From a virus: a stretch of 20,714 nt of DNA. Every line of letters begins with the position of its first letter. The first letter of the stretch is position 1. The notes beneath the pieces are model-generated. The model saw only the letters and a list, made by a program, of their open reading frames with translations, ran no database searches and was not told the origin of the DNA. Location: positions 1 to 20,714 of IMG/VR virus record IMGVR_UViG_3300046006_005360. One strand, written 5' to 3'. Of the stretch, positions 2,183-20,137 are shown piece by piece. The position numbers were made by a program, and so were the translations under genes.

Positions 2183-2974
2183 TCACAACGCGATGCTTTG
2201 ACGGCGTGAAGCGCTCATCGAGACACGCTCCTGGCTCTTGTAGTCACCGAAGTCGATGTGGGCCTTCCACTTGCGTTTCAGATGCCGTTTCTCGGTGGCG
2301 ATGCGCTCCGCACTGCGGAAGATCGAATTGCCGCCGAGGTTCTTGTCGCGCTCCTGCACGAAGCAGAATCGCGCTTCATTCCAGACCAAACGATTGTCGA
2401 GAAGCTCCTGGAGCGTGGCGTCGATGTCGCACTTGCACTTGAGCAGTTCATCCCAAACCGGCACACCACCGTTGGTATCGCGCACCACGCCGACTGCACC
2501 GCCCACCCAATGGTTCACACCAAAGGGGTCATTGCGTTGCAGCAGGCGCGGATCACTGCGTTGATGCCAGCCAAATAAACGTGCTCCGGCTCCACTGGCA
2601 TTGTAGGCCGAGTTGCTGAGCATTTGTAGCGTTTCCTCCACGGACAGCTTGCGGCAGCGAAGCGACACCATGCAGACGCAGGCGCTGATGTCGTCATCGA
2701 GCATGATGATCGCGTCCTCCTTGAAGTGACTCAGCACCCAGTTGCGCAACGAGGAGATGCCCATCACGGAGTCCGGCACGGTGGCCTTCGTCAGTTGGAT
2801 ATGAGCATATTGCTCAAGCTCGCTTTCCGGCACGAGCAGCGTGGCGCTCGGGAACAGTTTGTGGCTGGTCATCGTTCGCGCCCGACTGCGGCTGAGGATG
2901 ACCAGGCGCAGGCTCAGGGGTTGGAGTTCCGGCCATAGCGGCTCGTTGGCAGAGTTCGATGAGGCGTTTTCCAT
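2183..2974 (-). CDS. GT-A-like glycosyltransferase, possibly of the TET/JBP-associated (TAGT) type
   Basis: The protein has about 264 residues. A first beta strand LRLVILSRSRA is followed by MTSHKLFPSATLLVPESE, then MGISSLRNWVL. Next comes IIMLDDDIS, a DDD cluster typical of the metal and nucleotide-sugar site of GT-A enzymes. Related proteins in phages are encoded beside ParB-like proteins and in base hypermodification clusters. The likely role is transfer of a sugar to a modified base or another acceptor, but the acceptor cannot be read here. ATG 2974 is used, and GTG 2983 is in frame. Neither has a ribosome site. The frame overlaps the end of the ParB-like gene by about 160 bases and is +1 relative to it. 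No TET/JBP dioxygenase or hydroxymethyluracil-forming enzyme is seen in the window. Confidence 0.7.
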   Translation of the reverse strand: MENASSNSANEPLWPELQPLSLRLVILSRSRARTMTSHKLFPSATLLVPESELEQYAHIQLTKATVPDSVMGISSLRNWVLSHFKEDAIIMLDDDISACVCMVSLRCRKLSVEETLQMLSNSAYNASGAGARLFGWHQRSDPRLLQRNDPFGVNHWVGGAVGVVRDTNGGVPVWDELLKCKCDIDATLQELLDNRLVWNEARFCFVQERDKNLGGNSIFRSAERIATEKRHLKRKWKAHIDFGDYKSQERVSMSASRRQSIAL

Positions 2975-3590
2975 AGAGGACACGGCCGATGCCGAGTTTT
3001 TTGGTGGTTCGTGTGATGGAGTAGTTCACCTCGCGCACGCCCATGAGTTGCAGCACCTGCATCCAGTCACGCAAATCATGGAACATGAAGACGAGGTAAT
3101 CGTGATGCTCGAAAGCCTGGCATTCCATGCGCGGGATGATTTCCAAATCCTCCGCAGGGTCTTCCGCCTCAAACAACTTGCGGATCTCGTCTTCGGCAAA
3201 GCCGGTGAGTTCGAGATCAAAGGCGGGATCGCTCTCCTGAATGGATTTGAGCAGGCGCTTCAAGTCGCCCTCGTCCAGTTCCGCCAGTTCTGCGAGGCGG
3301 TTGTCAGCGAGCAGATCGGCGAGTTCCTCGGCTTCGGTGGCATAGTCCTGCTCATCCACCGGCACGGCTTCACAGCCGATGAGAAGCGCGGCCTCCAGCC
3401 GGCCATGCCCGCGCACGATCATCCCGCTGCGTTTGGAGAGGGTGATGGGATTGCGCCAGCCCTGCTCTTGAATGATGGAGGCCAGCAACGCGATTTGATG
3501 CGCACTATGCCGGTTTGGATTGGCCGGATTGGGCTTCAGCGTGTCGGGGTCCACCAGTCGAGTGTGTGCGCAGTAAATGGGAATACTCAC
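2814..3590 (-). CDS. ParB/sulfiredoxin-fold nuclease-like protein
   Basis: The 258-residue protein begins MSIPIYCAHTRLVDPDTLKPNPANPNRHS. It carries the ParB N-terminal domain: HQIALLASIIQEQGWRNPITL, then the nucleotide-binding box IVRGHGRLEAA (58-68), then LADNR (94-98). A second conserved-looking domain follows (EHHDYLVFMFHDLRDW to LGIGRVLYGKRLIELC, about 160-225). The last 40 or so residues are Pro/Gln/Arg-rich and overlap the glycosyltransferase frame, so they look like a read-through tail. ParB-fold domains bind or hydrolyse CTP or ATP, and phage members also occur in DNA modification or processing clusters. The start is GTG 3590 with a poorly spaced AGGGG, so the true start is uncertain. 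It is the first gene of the leftward block. Confidence 0.8.
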   Translation of the reverse strand: MSIPIYCAHTRLVDPDTLKPNPANPNRHSAHQIALLASIIQEQGWRNPITLSKRSGMIVRGHGRLEAALLIGCEAVPVDEQDYATEAEELADLLADNRLAELAELDEGDLKRLLKSIQESDPAFDLELTGFAEDEIRKLFEAEDPAEDLEIIPRMECQAFEHHDYLVFMFHDLRDWMQVLQLMGVREVNYSITRTTKKLGIGRVLYGKRLIELCQRAAMAGTPTPEPAPGHPQPQSGANDDQPQTVPERHAARAGKRA

Positions 3591-12443: not shown

Positions 12444-13649
12444 ATGCACCCCGCAACCATGCGCCTGATCCTCGCCATAATCTTTCTTGCTGCCACAGCG
12501 CATGATCTGAGTGCTCGTGAGTGGAAAAGTTCCGATGGCAGTAGAACCTTCCAAGGGCAGCTTATTTCATACCTCCCACCACAGGTTACTGTGGTGCGGA
12601 CAGATGGAACCCGCATCACTTTCCGTGAAGACTTACTGAGCCAAGCAGACAAGAGATACTGCTTTCTTGCTAACCGCGTTTTGAGCAGTTCGTTTCCGAA
12701 TATACCATACAAAGTGATTCAGGTCTTAGATTATGGGCTTCTTGTTAATGAATTGCCGACGAATAATCCATACTACTCAAACGAGTTCATGATGATATGG
12801 GGAAACTACAAGCAGACTGTCGCAGAGAATGAAGCATACGGGGGCAATATTTATTGGGCCGGGTCATACAGCTACAAAACTGTGAATGGAGATGAACGAA
12901 CTATTCGCAGCTTTGCCATGTCTCTAGACGAGGCAGTCGCCATTTGGGAATACCGATTGTCCCCGCCAGACCAAACTTCAAAGGGGGAACGCACTCCAAA
13001 GCTCACTAAAGAAAGCCTTTCTTCAAGCGGAACTGGATTCGCAGTCACAAGTATTGGCCATGTTGTCACCAATGCACACGTCGTTGACGGGGCTCGAAAA
13101 ATTTCTGTGCGTATTGGGGACAAGCTTGTTGCAGCGAGGCTTGTCGCAATTGACCAGCAGAATGACCTTGCTGTGCTCAAGGTTGATAGCACAACGCTAC
13201 CGCTTAAAATAGGTGCAACCGATTCTGTGAAGCTGGGCGATGAGATAACGGTTGGCGGTTTCCCGAACCCTGATATTCAGGGGACGAGCCTCAAGCTCAC
13301 ACGCGGAGTGATAAGTGGAATGAAGGGCATTCAAGATGACGTTCGACATTACCAAATTGATGCGGCCGTTCAGCCAGGCAACTCGGGTGGCCCACTACTT
13401 AGCACTAGCCGCTCAGTAGTGGGAGTGGTGAACGCCCGTCTCAACGATTCCGCCGTTGCCCTCGCGACTGGGTCGCTACCCCAGAACGTCAATTATGCCA
13501 TCAAGACAGACTACCTAATGCCTCTGGTTCGCAGCGTCGATGGCCTCACCGAGCAAATAGCCAAAGAGACATATGCCCAAGAGATTTCCATCGGACAGTG
13601 CCTTGAGCGCTCAGCGCACCAAGTCATATGCGATCTATCACCCCAATAA
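12444..13649 (+). CDS. Secreted trypsin-like serine protease with SHD1-like N-terminal domain
   Basis: The 401-residue protein has a signal peptide (MRLILAIIFLAATAHDLSA, about 6-24). A small domain follows (REWKSSDGSRTFQGQL to FREDLLSQADKRY, 25-72) that resembles the SHD1 domain common in secreted proteins of Planctomycetes and Verrucomicrobia. The C-terminal half is an S1C/DegP-type protease with a complete triad: H212 in TNAHVV, D241 in QNDLAVLKV and S314 in QPGNSGGPLL. No PDZ domain is present. It would work outside the cytoplasm. ATG 12444 is taken, and ATG 12459 is also possible. Codon use is AT-richer than in the neighbouring head genes, and the gene follows a terminator, so it looks like acquired cargo, not a virion gene. 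Confidence 0.88.
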   Translation: MHPATMRLILAIIFLAATAHDLSAREWKSSDGSRTFQGQLISYLPPQVTVVRTDGTRITFREDLLSQADKRYCFLANRVLSSSFPNIPYKVIQVLDYGLLVNELPTNNPYYSNEFMMIWGNYKQTVAENEAYGGNIYWAGSYSYKTVNGDERTIRSFAMSLDEAVAIWEYRLSPPDQTSKGERTPKLTKESLSSSGTGFAVTSIGHVVTNAHVVDGARKISVRIGDKLVAARLVAIDQQNDLAVLKVDSTTLPLKIGATDSVKLGDEITVGGFPNPDIQGTSLKLTRGVISGMKGIQDDVRHYQIDAAVQPGNSGGPLLSTSRSVVGVVNARLNDSAVALATGSLPQNVNYAIKTDYLMPLVRSVDGLTEQIAKETYAQEISIGQCLERSAHQVICDLSPQ

Positions 13650-13771
13650 CAAAGCCGAACAATGGCGCTGCTGGACAACGGGAGGGGCGCGTGTTGTCGT
13701 ATCAAAGTCCATCGCAGTTTGAATATCACCCACTCCGTTCATGCTCTGAACCATCCATCCCGTGCCGGAGC

Positions 13772-13789
13772 TTAAACGCCAGGCGATTC
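13772..13789. repeat. Left copy of an imperfect inverted repeat flanking a two-gene unit
   Basis: The reverse complement of these 18 bases, GAATCGCCTGGCGTTTAA, matches 14757-14774 at 14 of 18 positions, nine of them consecutive. The pair encloses the secreted-protein and membrane-protein genes. Confidence 0.3.
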
Positions 13790-13804
13790 AACACGTTTCT
13801 TCCA

Positions 13805-14413
13805 ATGAAAAGACTTCTACCACTTATCCTTGCAGCCGTTCTCGAAATTGCATCCTTCGGTCAGAGTCTGTTCCAGCAGCAAACGTTTGCAGGCGGCCTC
13901 GCGATTCAAATCCCCACGAACTGGAAGATTCTCGATTCCGCCACCACACAACAATTGGACACCAACACCGAGGCAACTACGGGCACCGCTCAAGGCAACA
14001 ATAAGATATTGCTCGCCGCCAATCTTTACTTGAGCGAGTCGCATCCATCAGCAACCGCTCGCCTCAGCGTCCGCACCGGACCAACGCTGTCCGAACGTGA
14101 ATTTCAGGCCATATCCGAATCAGAGTTCCAGGCGCAGTCCGGCAACAACCGTGCAAGTGTCGAGCGGAGTCTGCGCGCCGCCGGCTATTCACTCGTCACG
14201 TATTCTGAGCAGCGCGAGACGTTGGCAGGGCACACCGCCCACACATCCACCTACGTCAGTGCCGATAAGGGCCGCCAAATCGTCAATGTCCTCAGCATCA
14301 TTTTCCTGGGTGATCGCAAGATCAAACTCCAAGTCACCTACGACAAGGCCAGCGAAACGAGCACAAAGGCAACTACCGACCGTATCCGCGGCTCACTCAC
14401 GATTCCCAAATGA
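13805..14413 (+). CDS. Secreted protein of unknown function
   Basis: The 202-residue protein starts at ATG 13805, chosen because MKRLLPLILAAVLEIASFGQS is a clear signal peptide. The longer upstream frame has none. The mature part runs FAGGLAIQIPTNWKIL, then a Thr/Gln-rich linker, then RLSVRTGPTLSEREFQAI. It ends KIKLQVTYDKASETSTKATTDRIRGSLTIP. This order of strands with a terminal helix and strand recalls PsbP-like or similar small exported beta-domain proteins, but I do not assign a family. It is coupled to the next gene by ATGA. It lies in the cargo island with the secreted protease and may act with it. Confidence 0.7.
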   Translation: MKRLLPLILAAVLEIASFGQSLFQQQTFAGGLAIQIPTNWKILDSATTQQLDTNTEATTGTAQGNNKILLAANLYLSESHPSATARLSVRTGPTLSEREFQAISESEFQAQSGNNRASVERSLRAAGYSLVTYSEQRETLAGHTAHTSTYVSADKGRQIVNVLSIIFLGDRKIKLQVTYDKASETSTKATTDRIRGSLTIPK

Positions 14414-14754
14414 CAACCGCTAAGCCGCCTCTAACCAAGGCGCGTAGCATCATTCCCATTCTCTGTGGGATTCTACTTTCGTGGCTTTGCCTTTACATGG
14501 TGCGCCAGGCCCTGGGCGTATTCTTTCCACCTCCAACGCAAGATATCTCAATGATGAAGCCCGTGACGAGGGAAGTCGTGGAGGATGTGCGCGCATACGT
14601 CGCCGAGAAGTATCCAAACAACGAACAGAAAGGGCGGTTCGGTACCACTTTCTTTCTCGTTCTGCGTGGCTTTGGTTTGCTCTTCTTTGGTAGCGGCACT
14701 CTTTTCGTCATCTATCGCGTATGGATTGCACCGTCTGCATCAACTCCGAAATGA
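14410..14754 (+). CDS. Two-helix membrane protein of unknown function
   Basis: The 114-residue protein begins at ATG 14410, overlapping the previous stop. It has two hydrophobic segments (about 13-39, SIIPILCGILLSWLCLYMV onward, and 80-106, TFFLVLRGFGLLFFGSGTL onward). A soluble stretch of about 40 residues with VVEDVRAYVAEKYPNNE separates them. A basic N terminus suggests both ends are cytoplasmic. No family is recognised. It could be a superinfection-exclusion or accessory protein by analogy with other phage morons, but nothing in the sequence shows this directly. Confidence 0.6.
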   Translation: MTTAKPPLTKARSIIPILCGILLSWLCLYMVRQALGVFFPPPTQDISMMKPVTREVVEDVRAYVAEKYPNNEQKGRFGTTFFLVLRGFGLLFFGSGTLFVIYRVWIAPSASTPK

Positions 14755-16897: not shown

Positions 16898-17649
16898 TCG
16901 AAGGCTGGTGGCCCACTCACAGCCTGAGCCTGGCGTCCTGTCTGGGAGCCCTGGGTTTTCCTATCCGCGCGGATGTGGTGCTCGATGAGCGCAGTGGCGA
17001 AGAAGTGACCACCTTTTATATGGGTCTTCAGTCGCTCTGGAACTCCATGGCCACGGATGCACTTATCAACGACTGGCATTCAGGCCGGCTGGAGCAGGCA
17101 GATCCGCTGCATCCTTTTCTGTGCGGTCTGCGCGCCTGTCACAACGCCAACCTGATCGCATCTTCGTTGCGCAACGAAGATCGAATCCGGCTCACGCTAA
17201 CGGCTGATGATCACGTCACGATCTACGACGACGGCGATGAACTGCCGAGCTTGCGTGATGCCGATGAATTGATCGAAACCACCGATGCGGGATTAGTCGC
17301 CGCGCTGGGGGTGATTGGCATCCCCATGATCGAGCACGAGAGCGGGCTATTCAGACTGCCGCGATTCGGTCATTCGGTGAAAGCTCCCAGCGGTGAATGG
17401 ATGCGGCATGATGCTCAAGCACTCATCCAGCAGCTTCGTGAGGGTCTCCTCGAACAGAGTGAACCACAGCATCCGCTGGTCAGTGCCTACAACGCCCGAT
17501 GTGTGCATGATCAAATCCGCCGGCATCTCCACGCCACGGGCCGTCGCGTGCTGCTGCGCAAGCCTCGCTCACTGCGCTCCGCCTTTGTTTCTGAGCAGGC
17601 GAGTGATGACATGCTTGACCGGGTGCAACGCCATTTCCGAATCGCATGA
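16894..17649 (+). CDS. Unidentified tail-module protein with internal duplication
   Basis: The 251-residue protein is not recognised. Residues 12-93 and 133-213 look like two copies of one domain. SLASCLGALGFPI matches GLVAALGVIGIPM. ALINDWHSGRLEQADPLHPF, with its conserved LEQ-PxHP core, matches ALIQQLREGLLEQSEPQHPL. A basic C-terminal tail (ATGRRVLLRKPRSLRSAF) follows. It is linked to the tube-like gene before it and the chaperone gene after it by ATGA overlaps, so it is almost surely part of tail building. It may be a tail assembly factor specific to this phage group. Confidence 0.7.
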   Translation: MIEGWWPTHSLSLASCLGALGFPIRADVVLDERSGEEVTTFYMGLQSLWNSMATDALINDWHSGRLEQADPLHPFLCGLRACHNANLIASSLRNEDRIRLTLTADDHVTIYDDGDELPSLRDADELIETTDAGLVAALGVIGIPMIEHESGLFRLPRFGHSVKAPSGEWMRHDAQALIQQLREGLLEQSEPQHPLVSAYNARCVHDQIRRHLHATGRRVLLRKPRSLRSAFVSEQASDDMLDRVQRHFRIA

Positions 17650-18167
17650 AAACTCATCCACCCAAACTCCGGCTTGATCCCGAGCCGACGAAAAAACCTG
17701 CACGCAAGGTTCACCGCGACGCTGTGCCTGAAGCTGTTCTCAACGCAGCTCAAACGGAGCGAGAAAACGCCTTTGAGGCCGAGCACACATGGCCTGTCTG
17801 GAACGAGCAGAAATGCTGCTTCCAACCAGCGCTGCTGCATGGCTACAGTTCAGGCCGTGAGGCGCTGTTCTACAAGCTGCGCGCTGCCGATGGCGCACTG
17901 CCCCTGTCCAAGACCTTGGAGCAGCTCACCACCTTCCTGGCGGATGCGATCAAGATTCTTTGGTTGTGCAGCCACGAACCACAGGAATGGCGCATGGTGC
18001 GCGGTGATCTATCGTTGTTTCTCGAAACCATCGAAGCCTGGGGCGACGTGAACGTGCCACGATCGAAACACGTTGCTGCCGTGAATCTGGCCCTGCAAAT
18101 CTTCAACGAGGCCAGCATCAACAGGGCTGTGCCTGAACCTTCCGAACGAGGCGACTTGGGAAACTAG
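17646..18167 (+). CDS. Tail assembly chaperone, gpG-like (frame 0 product)
   Basis: The 173-residue protein directly precedes the tape measure region. It is charged at the N terminus (basic, Pro-rich) and helical in the middle (LSKTLEQLTTFLADAIKILWLCSHEP). The C-terminal half contains WRMVRGDLSLFLETIEAWGD. It ends with codons TTG GGA AAC and a TAG stop, and those codons contain the slippery heptamer GGGAAAC. In lambda-like phages gpG and the frameshift product gpGT bind the tape measure and recruit the tube protein. Identification comes from the position and frameshift site, not from sequence similarity. Confidence 0.78.
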   Translation: MKTHPPKLRLDPEPTKKPARKVHRDAVPEAVLNAAQTERENAFEAEHTWPVWNEQKCCFQPALLHGYSSGREALFYKLRAADGALPLSKTLEQLTTFLADAIKILWLCSHEPQEWRMVRGDLSLFLETIEAWGDVNVPRSKHVAAVNLALQIFNEASINRAVPEPSERGDLGN

Positions 18168-18379
18168 CCCAGCCCGTGTCGGAGGCGCAATACATCACGG
18201 TGATTGCGCGCGGCACGGGCTGGACCGAAGATTACATTCGCTGGCAACTGCCGCTCTCCCGTGGGCGAGCTTACGTCCATGCGTTAAGGCTCATGGAAGG
18301 TGAGTCGATGATGTGGCCGGACCGCAGGTTGTCGGAAACTGGACGATGGTGGTCGCGAGTGCGCCATCGGTTCCATTGA
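17646..18379 (+). CDS. G-T fusion by programmed -1 frameshift (tail assembly chaperone long form)
   Basis: Slippage at GGGAAAC (18158-18164) moves ribosomes to the -1 frame, which reads CTA GCC CAG CCC GTG and stays open to TGA at 18377-18379. The fused protein would have 173 residues from G plus 71 from T, 244 in total. The T part is SEAQYITVIARGTGWTEDYIRWQLPLSRGRAYVHALRLMEG onward. A typical gpT recruits the tail tube protein to the tape measure. The ratio of short to long form normally sets efficient tail assembly. Confidence 0.75.
18158..18223 (+). promoter_or_regulatory. Programmed -1 ribosomal frameshift site with downstream hairpin
   Basis: The heptamer G GGA AAC is in the correct register and sits directly before the TAG stop (18165-18167). 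Four bases later a hairpin starts: 18169-18181 pairs with 18211-18223 over 13 pairs with one G-U. Inside it GCGCAAT (18185-18191) pairs perfectly with ATTGCGC (18203-18209). Confidence 0.85.
18164..18379 (+). CDS. gpT-like extension frame of the tail assembly chaperone
   Basis: This is the -1 frame segment read after the shift. It can also be opened by GTG 18176 as a 67-residue ORF, but no ribosome site precedes that codon, so it is best regarded only as the fused part of the long chaperone. It ends 18 bases before the tape measure start. Tryptophan- and arginine-rich residues (GRWWSRVRHRFH) close it. Confidence 0.65.
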   Translation, partial: LAQPVSEAQYITVIARGTGWTEDYIRWQLPLSRGRAYVHALRLMEGESMMWPDRRLSETGRWWSRVRHRFH

Positions 18380-18397
18380 CATCCAGCGCCGTCTGCA

Positions 18398-20137
18398 ATG
18401 GCAGCACCAAAAGTCGAACTTGGCTGGGATAACACCGATCTGCAGGCCGGGGCTGCTAAAGCTCAGGGCATTCTGTCAGGCTTTGCCACTCGTGCCCGCA
18501 GCACTCTGGGCAAGGCGATGAGTGCCGATGTGGTGGGCGGCTTCGGTCAGCTCGCTGCGGCCGTCGGTTCCTTGACGGGCCTTAAATCCGTCATCGACGA
18601 TTTTGATCGACTCAATGATCTCTCCGTCCAACTCGACACGAGTGTTGAGAGTGTTCAGCGCCTTGGGGTCATGGCCAAGCTCTCCGGCAGTGATGTGGAA
18701 ACCCTCGTCAAAGGCGTCTCTAAACTGACTCGCTCGCTGGCTGATGCGGAGAACAGTGAGAAGACCGCAGAGTCCCTAAAACAGCTTGGCGTGAGCGCTT
18801 CCAAGCTGCGCTCTATGTCGCTGGAGGAGCAGATCATGGCGCTCTCCGAAGCGTTCATCAGCGCACGCGGACGTGGCGAAGGGTTCGCGGAGGTGTTCGA
18901 TCTCATGGGTCGCAACGGTGCCGAGCTGATTCCGCTGCTCATGCAGGGGCGTGAAGAATTGCAGGCACTCGCCGACACACCGGTGCTCAGCCAAGAGCAG
19001 GTTCAGCGCCTCGCTGAATTCAATGATCAGCTTGATGCCGGTGTTCTAAAATTAAAGGCATGGACTGCCGAATCGCTCCTGGGTCTTGCCGACTTCGCGG
19101 CAGTGTCCGGTGCGGCTCTTTTCGGTGGTCTGGATGGCAGCTTCACCGAACGCGTCGAACAGGCGGCGACCGCGCTTGCTCAATCTAAAGTTGAATCCGA
19201 AGAGGCGGCTGCCGCGCAGGAGAAGCAACGTGAGGCTGCGCGCGAAGCCGCCGAATGGTCGAAGAAGATTGCCGCAGCGCAGAAAGAGGCGGCGGCAAGC
19301 ATTGAGAAAGGTCAGAAGGAACTCGAGGCGCAGGAAAAACGGATGCAGGGCATTCGTGAGCAGATCAACCAAGCCAAAGGCGGCAATCTCAAGCAGAAGC
19401 TCAGCCCTGACGAGAACCTTGAACTCGCCAAAGGCAACGTGTCCGACATCGAAGCGAAGATGAAATCCGCCCGCGACAAGGCCTACATGGATGGCAAAGG
19501 GGGCCAGGACACAGAGGAGGTTCTTCAACTCGAACTTCAGCGTCAGAAGATGCTCGGCGACATCCTCACGCTAGAACAACAGATCAGCGCGGAGAAGGAT
19601 CGCCAACAGCAAGCCGAAGCTGAAAAGACCGCTCAGCAAAACGAAGCTCGTTCGGGCATGGCCAACGATCTTCAAGTGCTGGAGTTGCGTGCCCGAGGCC
19701 GCAACAAGGAAGCCGATGCACTGGAACGACAGGCACGCATTCAGCAGGAAGCACGGCGCATTGCCGAGGAGACGGGTATGTCGCAGCAGGAATCTCTCCG
19801 CATCGCCCAGACCAAGAGCGCCTTGGAGGAACGTGCGGCCAACCGGCAGGATGGAGGTCGCCAACGCATCCAGGGATATTCGGCGATGAGCCAGGGAACT
19901 GCCGATGACGCGAGGAGTCGTGCGGAGCAGAGGATGGCCGAGGCACGATCACGAGTGCAGAGTTCCTACGATCGCTTCATGCCAGGTTTGAAGGGCGGCC
20001 CGCAGGACAATCCGCTGGCCCAACGCGCGGCCCAAAACGCTGCCGCCGATAAAGCGCCCGCTGAGAACGGCACTTCCCAACAGGCCGCGCAGATGGTTGC
20101 GCAAATCCTGCCACAAATCCTGGAGGCGTTGAAATGA
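18398..20137 (+). CDS. Tape measure protein
   Basis: The 579-residue protein starts MAAPKVELGWDNTDLQAGAAKAQGIL. The N-terminal half resembles the conserved start of tape measure proteins (RARSTLGKAM, LAAAVGSLTGLKSVIDDFDRLNDLSVQLDTSVESVQRLGVMAKLSGSDVETL). Residues about 264-530 are a long Ala/Glu/Gln/Lys-rich coiled coil (EAAAAQEKQREAAREAAEW onward). It fixes tail length by being stretched inside the tube. At about 1.5 angstrom per residue this would mean a tail near 87 nm. No lytic or peptidase domain is seen. The end overlaps the next start by ATGA. Confidence 0.9.
   Translation: MAAPKVELGWDNTDLQAGAAKAQGILSGFATRARSTLGKAMSADVVGGFGQLAAAVGSLTGLKSVIDDFDRLNDLSVQLDTSVESVQRLGVMAKLSGSDVETLVKGVSKLTRSLADAENSEKTAESLKQLGVSASKLRSMSLEEQIMALSEAFISARGRGEGFAEVFDLMGRNGAELIPLLMQGREELQALADTPVLSQEQVQRLAEFNDQLDAGVLKLKAWTAESLLGLADFAAVSGAALFGGLDGSFTERVEQAATALAQSKVESEEAAAAQEKQREAAREAAEWSKKIAAAQKEAAASIEKGQKELEAQEKRMQGIREQINQAKGGNLKQKLSPDENLELAKGNVSDIEAKMKSARDKAYMDGKGGQDTEEVLQLELQRQKMLGDILTLEQQISAEKDRQQQAEAEKTAQQNEARSGMANDLQVLELRARGRNKEADALERQARIQQEARRIAEETGMSQQESLRIAQTKSALEERAANRQDGGRQRIQGYSAMSQGTADDARSRAEQRMAEARSRVQSSYDRFMPGLKGGPQDNPLAQRAAQNAAADKAPAENGTSQQAAQMVAQILPQILEALK

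What the first reader, a model, noticed from the sequence alone, without database searches (positions are those of the whole stretch)
18158..18223. Programmed -1 frameshift with a two-tier hairpin joining tail chaperones G and T
GGGAAAC is in the proper register, directly before the TAG. The -1 frame is open through T, and a 13-bp stem with an inner 7-bp stem begins four bases later. Lambda uses GGGAAAG at the same gene pair. The adjacent stop and extensive hairpin make this a very complete example.
Basis: partly seen in the sequence, partly recalled or inferred. Interest (0 to 1): 0.65.

Follow-up and report, generated by a model that had tools for sequence, protein, structure and literature searches.

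The report
Ribosome frameshift joining phage tail chaperones
A virus of Verrucomicrobiota bacteria carries a conserved signal, a slippery sequence plus an RNA hairpin, that should make some ribosomes slip back one base and join two tail-building proteins; this is a well-known trick of tailed phages, and the surprise here is mainly how strongly the hairpin is preserved in its relatives.

Summary
GGGAAAC (18158-18164) lies in register directly before the TAG of a 173-aa ORF. The -1 frame is open to 18379, and a two-tier hairpin follows (MFE -39.8 kcal/mol, z -5.9). The window is an IMG/VR virus record; its nearest cellular relatives are Verrucomicrobiaceae/Prosthecobacter MAGs.

All 12 close relatives that keep both genes keep GGGAAACTAG. 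Synonymous sites are frozen across the hairpin (3 of 14 codons vary, against 23 of 26 in the rest of T). A more distant relative shows three compensatory stem changes. Remote T homologues have other heptamers in the same place (AAAAAAC, CCCAAAC, GGGAAAG, AAAAAAG). Several have no start codon that could begin T separately, and some are one uninterrupted G-T ORF.

Corrections: the 13-bp stem is a local extension. The conserved core is 7 bp, beginning 7 nt after the heptamer, plus the inner stem. Lambda's own site has no such structure. The proteins match lambda G/T by position, not by sequence.

Within this family, AAC-ending sites carry the hairpin and AAG-ending sites do not. That rests on about two switches on the tree, and Burkholderia phage KL1 does not follow it. 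New member of a known kind; no expression data.

The parts
17646..18167 (+). upstream chaperone gene (G position), 173 aa, ending GGA AAC TAG
   Evidence: 71-94% identical homologues in the same place
18148..18151 (+). [quoted passage not shown] possible upstream stimulator, present only in part of the close clade
   Evidence: spacing rule from PMC4066793
18158..18164 (+). slippery heptamer G GGA AAC
18165..18167 (+). 0-frame stop TAG directly after the heptamer
18169..18181 (+). 5' arm of the outer stem; conserved core 18172-18178
18185..18191 (+). 5' arm of the inner stem
18203..18209 (+). 3' arm of the inner stem
18211..18223 (+). 3' arm of the outer stem; conserved core 18214-18220
18158..18379 (+). 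-1 frame (T position), read after the shift; 71 codons are added to the 173 of G to give 244 aa
18398..20137 (+). tape-measure gene directly downstream, 579 aa
   Evidence: PHROG tape-measure families, best 9.8e-18 for one so named

Best explanation
This is a programmed -1 ribosomal frameshift signal in the tail-chaperone genes of a Verrucomicrobiota siphovirus-like phage. Ribosomes decoding GGA AAC slip back one base onto GGG AAA while a hairpin starting 4-7 nt downstream holds them. Most terminate at the adjacent TAG and release the 173-aa G protein. A minority continue into the -1 frame and make a 244-aa G-T fusion. By analogy with lambda, G coats the tape-measure protein and the T part recruits the tail-tube protein, so the shift rate sets the G to G-T ratio. 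Shown by sequence: heptamer, register, open frame, hairpin, their conservation and covariation, and the absence of another way to start T in several relatives. Inferred: that frameshifting occurs, its rate, and the chaperone roles.
For: All 12 close relatives with both genes have GGGAAACTAG. Across 13 of these sequences, hairpin codons vary synonymously at 3 of 14 sites, against 23 of 26 in the rest of T (p 4e-5) and 50 of 60 in G (p 2e-5). In the 14-sequence alignment the 7-bp core is paired in every sequence, with three compensatory double changes in L047; 0 of 500 shuffles reach this and slid structures give at most one. Remote T homologues in Verrucomicrobiota genomes have GGGAAAC, AAAAAAC, CCCAAAC, GGGAAAG or AAAAAAG in register at the same place, followed by a 0-frame stop. 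In 17 AAC-type representatives the folding z against synonymous recoding averages -3.0 at 4-7 nt after the heptamer and stays near 0 to -1 in windows further upstream or downstream. In L125, L128, L133, L085 and L055, among others, the first possible start codon in the T frame lies 27-51 codons in, within or past the conserved core. L084, L087, L086, L136 and L142 carry T as the end of one continuous ORF. A tape-measure gene follows.
Against: No expression or proteomic data. G_GGA_AAC is a low-efficiency heptamer in E. coli (PMC4066793), though used by IS elements and phages. G and T match no curated family, and the AlphaFold model of G is too poor to compare (mean pLDDT 47). L144 has AGGAAAC where a heptamer is expected.
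Confidence: 0.94

Rival explanations
1. T is a separate protein started at GTG 18176 by translational coupling after the TAG; the heptamer is coincidental and the hairpin acts on initiation.
For: A GTG lies in the T frame 8 nt after the stop codon in the window and the close relatives.
Against: No Shine-Dalgarno sequence precedes it (GAAACTAGCCCAGCCC). Remote homologues keep a heptamer but have no start codon until 27-51 codons into T. The -1 reading upstream of the GTG is conserved (K, A, P columns), and several homologues are in-frame fusions.
Confidence: 0.04
2. The hairpin is not a frameshift stimulator but a by-product of GC-rich coding for conserved residues (P..., TGW), or a terminator or other regulatory RNA; the heptamer alone does the work, as in lambda.
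For: Lambda (z -0.28), AH2 (0.17) and KL1 (-0.47) sites lack structure. AAG-type relatives with the same TGW residues also lack it (mean z +0.14).
Against: Synonymous-codon shuffles keep the protein and still never reach the window's MFE (0 of 500). The signal sits at 4-7 nt only. There are compensatory changes, and no T run or credible Rfam match.
Confidence: 0.08
3. The stop between the frames is a sequencing error or pseudogene damage, and G-T is one gene.
For: In-frame G-T ORFs exist in some relatives.
Against: The same heptamer and TAG recur in 12 separately assembled relatives, and other heptamers recur in remote lineages, one of them also present as separate frames in the Akkermansia phage Moulinsart record.
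Confidence: 0.01

Closest known systems
Lambda G/GT programmed -1 frameshift (conserved translational frameshift in tail assembly genes, Xu, Hendrix and Duda 2004; summarised in PMC5009743)
   Same: X_XXY_YYZ heptamer with GGGAAA core at the end of the gene before the tape-measure gene; -1 frame extends the first protein; low-level fusion expected.
   Different: Here the heptamer ends in AAC, not AAG; the 0-frame stop is adjacent; a strong conserved hairpin follows, whereas lambda's site has none (z -0.28). The -1 part is 71 codons here, about 144 annotated in lambda. No sequence similarity was found.
Burkholderia phage KL1 gp18/gp19 (PMC3483164) and Caulobacter phage Colossus (PMC3556154)
   Same: GGGAAAC at the same gene pair; in KL1 also immediately before the stop codon.
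   Different: KL1's downstream 66 nt are not more structured than synonymous shuffles (z -0.47). Colossus was not folded here.
Akkermansia phage Moulinsart G/T pair (ON453896)
   Same: T-frame protein 97.6% identical to the remote homologue L029, whose site is AAAAAAC plus hairpin; tape-measure gene downstream.
   Different: Different heptamer; annotated as two separate hypothetical proteins with no frameshift.
IS3/IS911-type -1 frameshift signals (PMC4066793)
   Same: Low-efficiency A-site AAC heptamers used with a hairpin starting 4-10 nt downstream, sometimes with an upstream SD-like sequence.
   Different: Transposase genes, not tail chaperones.

Membership tests
[quoted passage not shown]
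Programmed -1 frameshift in phage tail-chaperone genes (lambda G/GT type) | -1 ORF overlapping or abutting and open through the heptamer | tested here: met
   conserved in relatives
Programmed -1 frameshift in phage tail-chaperone genes (lambda G/GT type) | Gene pair lies just upstream of the tape-measure gene | tested here: met
   (18398-20137 matches PHROG tape-measure families)
Programmed -1 frameshift in phage tail-chaperone genes (lambda G/GT type) | Heptamer conserved with both frames in relatives | tested here: met
   12 of 12 close relatives; varied heptamers in remote ones
Programmed -1 frameshift in phage tail-chaperone genes (lambda G/GT type) | Sequence or fold homology of the proteins to known tail chaperones | tested here: inconclusive
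   no Pfam or PHROG match; AlphaFold pLDDT 47, not searched further
Programmed -1 frameshift in phage tail-chaperone genes (lambda G/GT type) | Fusion protein made at low level | not testable with these tools
   needs a reporter or mass spectrometry
[quoted passage not shown]
   starts 4 nt (window) or 7 nt (conserved core) after the heptamer
Bacterial -1 frameshift with downstream stimulatory hairpin (PMC4066793 rules) | Hairpin conserved and covarying | tested here: met
   three double changes in the core stem, all in one sequence, L047; synonymous suppression
Bacterial -1 frameshift with downstream stimulatory hairpin (PMC4066793 rules) | Stem mutation lowers frameshifting | not testable with these tools
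   reporter needed

The most novel reading that the evidence does not exclude
In Verrucomicrobiota phages the slippery site and the stimulator evolve as a unit: sites with an A-site Asn codon (GGGAAAC, AAAAAAC, CCCAAAC) are backed by a hairpin 4-7 nt downstream whose arms change together, while relatives that use the inherently slippery AAG lack it, keeping the G to G-T ratio steady.
Probability: 0.4. Interest if true: 0.5.

Novelty: new member of a known kind. Interest (0 to 1): 0.33.

Why it matters
It extends the tail-chaperone frameshift, with comparative evidence rather than a single site, to phages of Verrucomicrobiota, including an Akkermansia phage whose record lists the two frames as unrelated hypothetical proteins. 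It also gives a natural series of homologous sites with and without a hairpin, useful for asking how slippery codon and stimulator trade off. Annotation that calls the two frames as separate genes, as in the Moulinsart record, misses the fusion protein.

Tried and rejected
Separate initiation of T at GTG 18176: rejected, see rivals. Known RNA family: no Rfam match above threshold. Naming G or T by family: Pfam and PHROG gave nothing, and the AlphaFold model of G was too weak to search. Phylogenetic test of the AAC/AAG-hairpin link: heptamer class changes only twice on the T tree and at most two independent pairs exist, so no significance can be claimed. Testing the link in other phages: lambda and AH2 (AAG) lack structure as expected, but KL1 (AAC) lacks it too, so the link is not general. 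Upstream SD-like stimulator: GAGG at 18148 is present only in part of the close clade, so not a conserved element. A covariance model was not built, because the stem register shifts between lineages. The four-letter-codon translation shifts +1, not -1, and was discarded.

Full report
What is there. The window is a 20,714-base IMG/VR virus record. A 173-aa ORF (17646-18167) ends ...TTG GGA AAC TAG. GGGAAAC at 18158-18164 is in the X_XXY_YYZ register, the -1 frame is open to 18379, and the fusion would be 244 residues. A two-tier hairpin follows: 18169-18181/18211-18223 with one G.U, and 18185-18191/18203-18209, MFE -39.8 kcal/mol, z -5.9, 0 of 200 shuffles as stable. About 0.04% of 66-nt windows on the strand fold as well. 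The downstream gene matches PHROG tape-measure families. The window also has a gpA-type terminase, a lambda-family portal and a GP7-type capsid protein.

Close relatives. Four IMG/VR contigs were found with G, two more with the tape-measure protein, and six MAG contigs, labelled Verrucomicrobiaceae, Prosthecobacter or uncultured Verrucomicrobia. Eleven that keep both genes have GGGAAACTAG; L074 makes twelve. L018 lost the heptamer and T together: its G runs into unrelated sequence and a 178-aa ORF stands where T would be; no T was found elsewhere in that assembly.

RNA-level constraint. In the close clade, codons conserved in amino acid vary synonymously at 3 of 14 positions across the hairpin, against 23 of 26 in the rest of T and 50 of 60 in G (Fisher p 4e-5 and 2e-5). 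These sequences are related, so the p values overstate independence, but the comparison is internal to the same sequences. Adding the more divergent L047, the 7-bp core (18172-18178/18214-18220) is paired in all 14 sequences with three double changes (G-C to C-G, C-G to G-U, G-C to C-G); none of 500 shuffles reaches three, and slid structures give at most one. All three double changes come from that one sequence. The A18171-T18221 pair is absent from most relatives, and the pairs at 18179 and 18181 are often broken, so the 13-bp stem is a local extension of a shorter conserved one, and the general spacer is 7 nt.

Remote relatives. Profiles of the -1 frame protein found T homologues across Verrucomicrobiota genomes, most of them in the order of the Prosthecobacter MAG (stretches fetched). 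Nearly all have a heptamer in register where T begins: GGGAAAC, AAAAAAC, CCCAAAC, GGGAAAG, AAAAAAG, with a long ORF upstream and a 0-frame stop soon after. In L125, L128, L133, L085, L055, L054 and L108 no start codon occurs in the T frame for 27-51 codons, so T can only be made as an extension of G. In L084, L087, L086, L136 and L142 the T-like part is the end of one continuous ORF with no heptamer there. The isolated Akkermansia phage Moulinsart carries a near-identical copy of one of these proteins, annotated as separate hypothetical proteins.

Hairpin and heptamer type. Against shuffles that keep the T protein and codon usage, 41 sites ending AAC have mean z -2.9 (range -4.9 to -0.9) and 32 ending AAG have mean +0.14. 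Scanning by offset, 17 AAC representatives average -3.0 at 4-7 nt after the heptamer and stay near zero to -1 elsewhere; nine AAG representatives are near zero at that place. Stem arms and register differ between lineages while pairing is kept. In E. [quoted passage not shown] PMC5009743), so a stimulator for AAC sites makes sense. But heptamer class changes only twice on the T tree, and KL1, a published GGGAAAC case (PMC3483164), has no significant structure here. The association is a lead, not a rule.

Interpretation. A programmed -1 frameshift is by far the best reading (0.94). The chaperone roles come from gene order and from lambda, where G and GT bind the tape-measure and tail-tube proteins (PMC5009743); sequence families and the structure model gave no independent support. 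Nothing here measures frameshifting. The kind of system is long known, GGGAAAC at this gene pair is published for KL1 and Colossus, and this is a new, unusually well-supported member.

Noticed in passing
18379-18398 in the window; L004/L007, L008/L014, L016, L018, L019, L020: The junction between T and the tape-measure gene looks like an insertion hotspot: the window has 18 bp there, some relatives (L007, L008) have other sequence or genes there, T C-termini differ among relatives, and in L018 the insert has replaced T altogether.
   Followed up: partly
L084, L087 (same genome), L086, L136, L142, L088: Homologues in which the G-like and T-like parts form one continuous ORF without a heptamer at the junction; how or whether these phages make G alone is unclear.
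   Followed up: partly
12444-13649 and 13628-14754: A trypsin-like peptidase gene (Pfam Trypsin_2, 1.2e-24) and two genes without Pfam match sit inside the head-tail module, between capsid and tail genes; possibly cargo.
   Followed up: no
L144 (same place as L080): A T homologue preceded by AGGAAAC instead of a clean heptamer; either a degenerate prophage or a weaker shift site.
   Followed up: no
18375-18410 in the window, same place in L006: In L006 an inverted repeat GTGCTGCC...GGCAGCAC spans the tape-measure start codon; it is imperfect in the window and in L008 (read by eye).
   Followed up: no
274-1182 and 2814-3590, minus strand: An ATP-dependent DNA ligase gene and a ParB-like gene (weak match) lie on the opposite strand at the left end of the window.
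   Followed up: no
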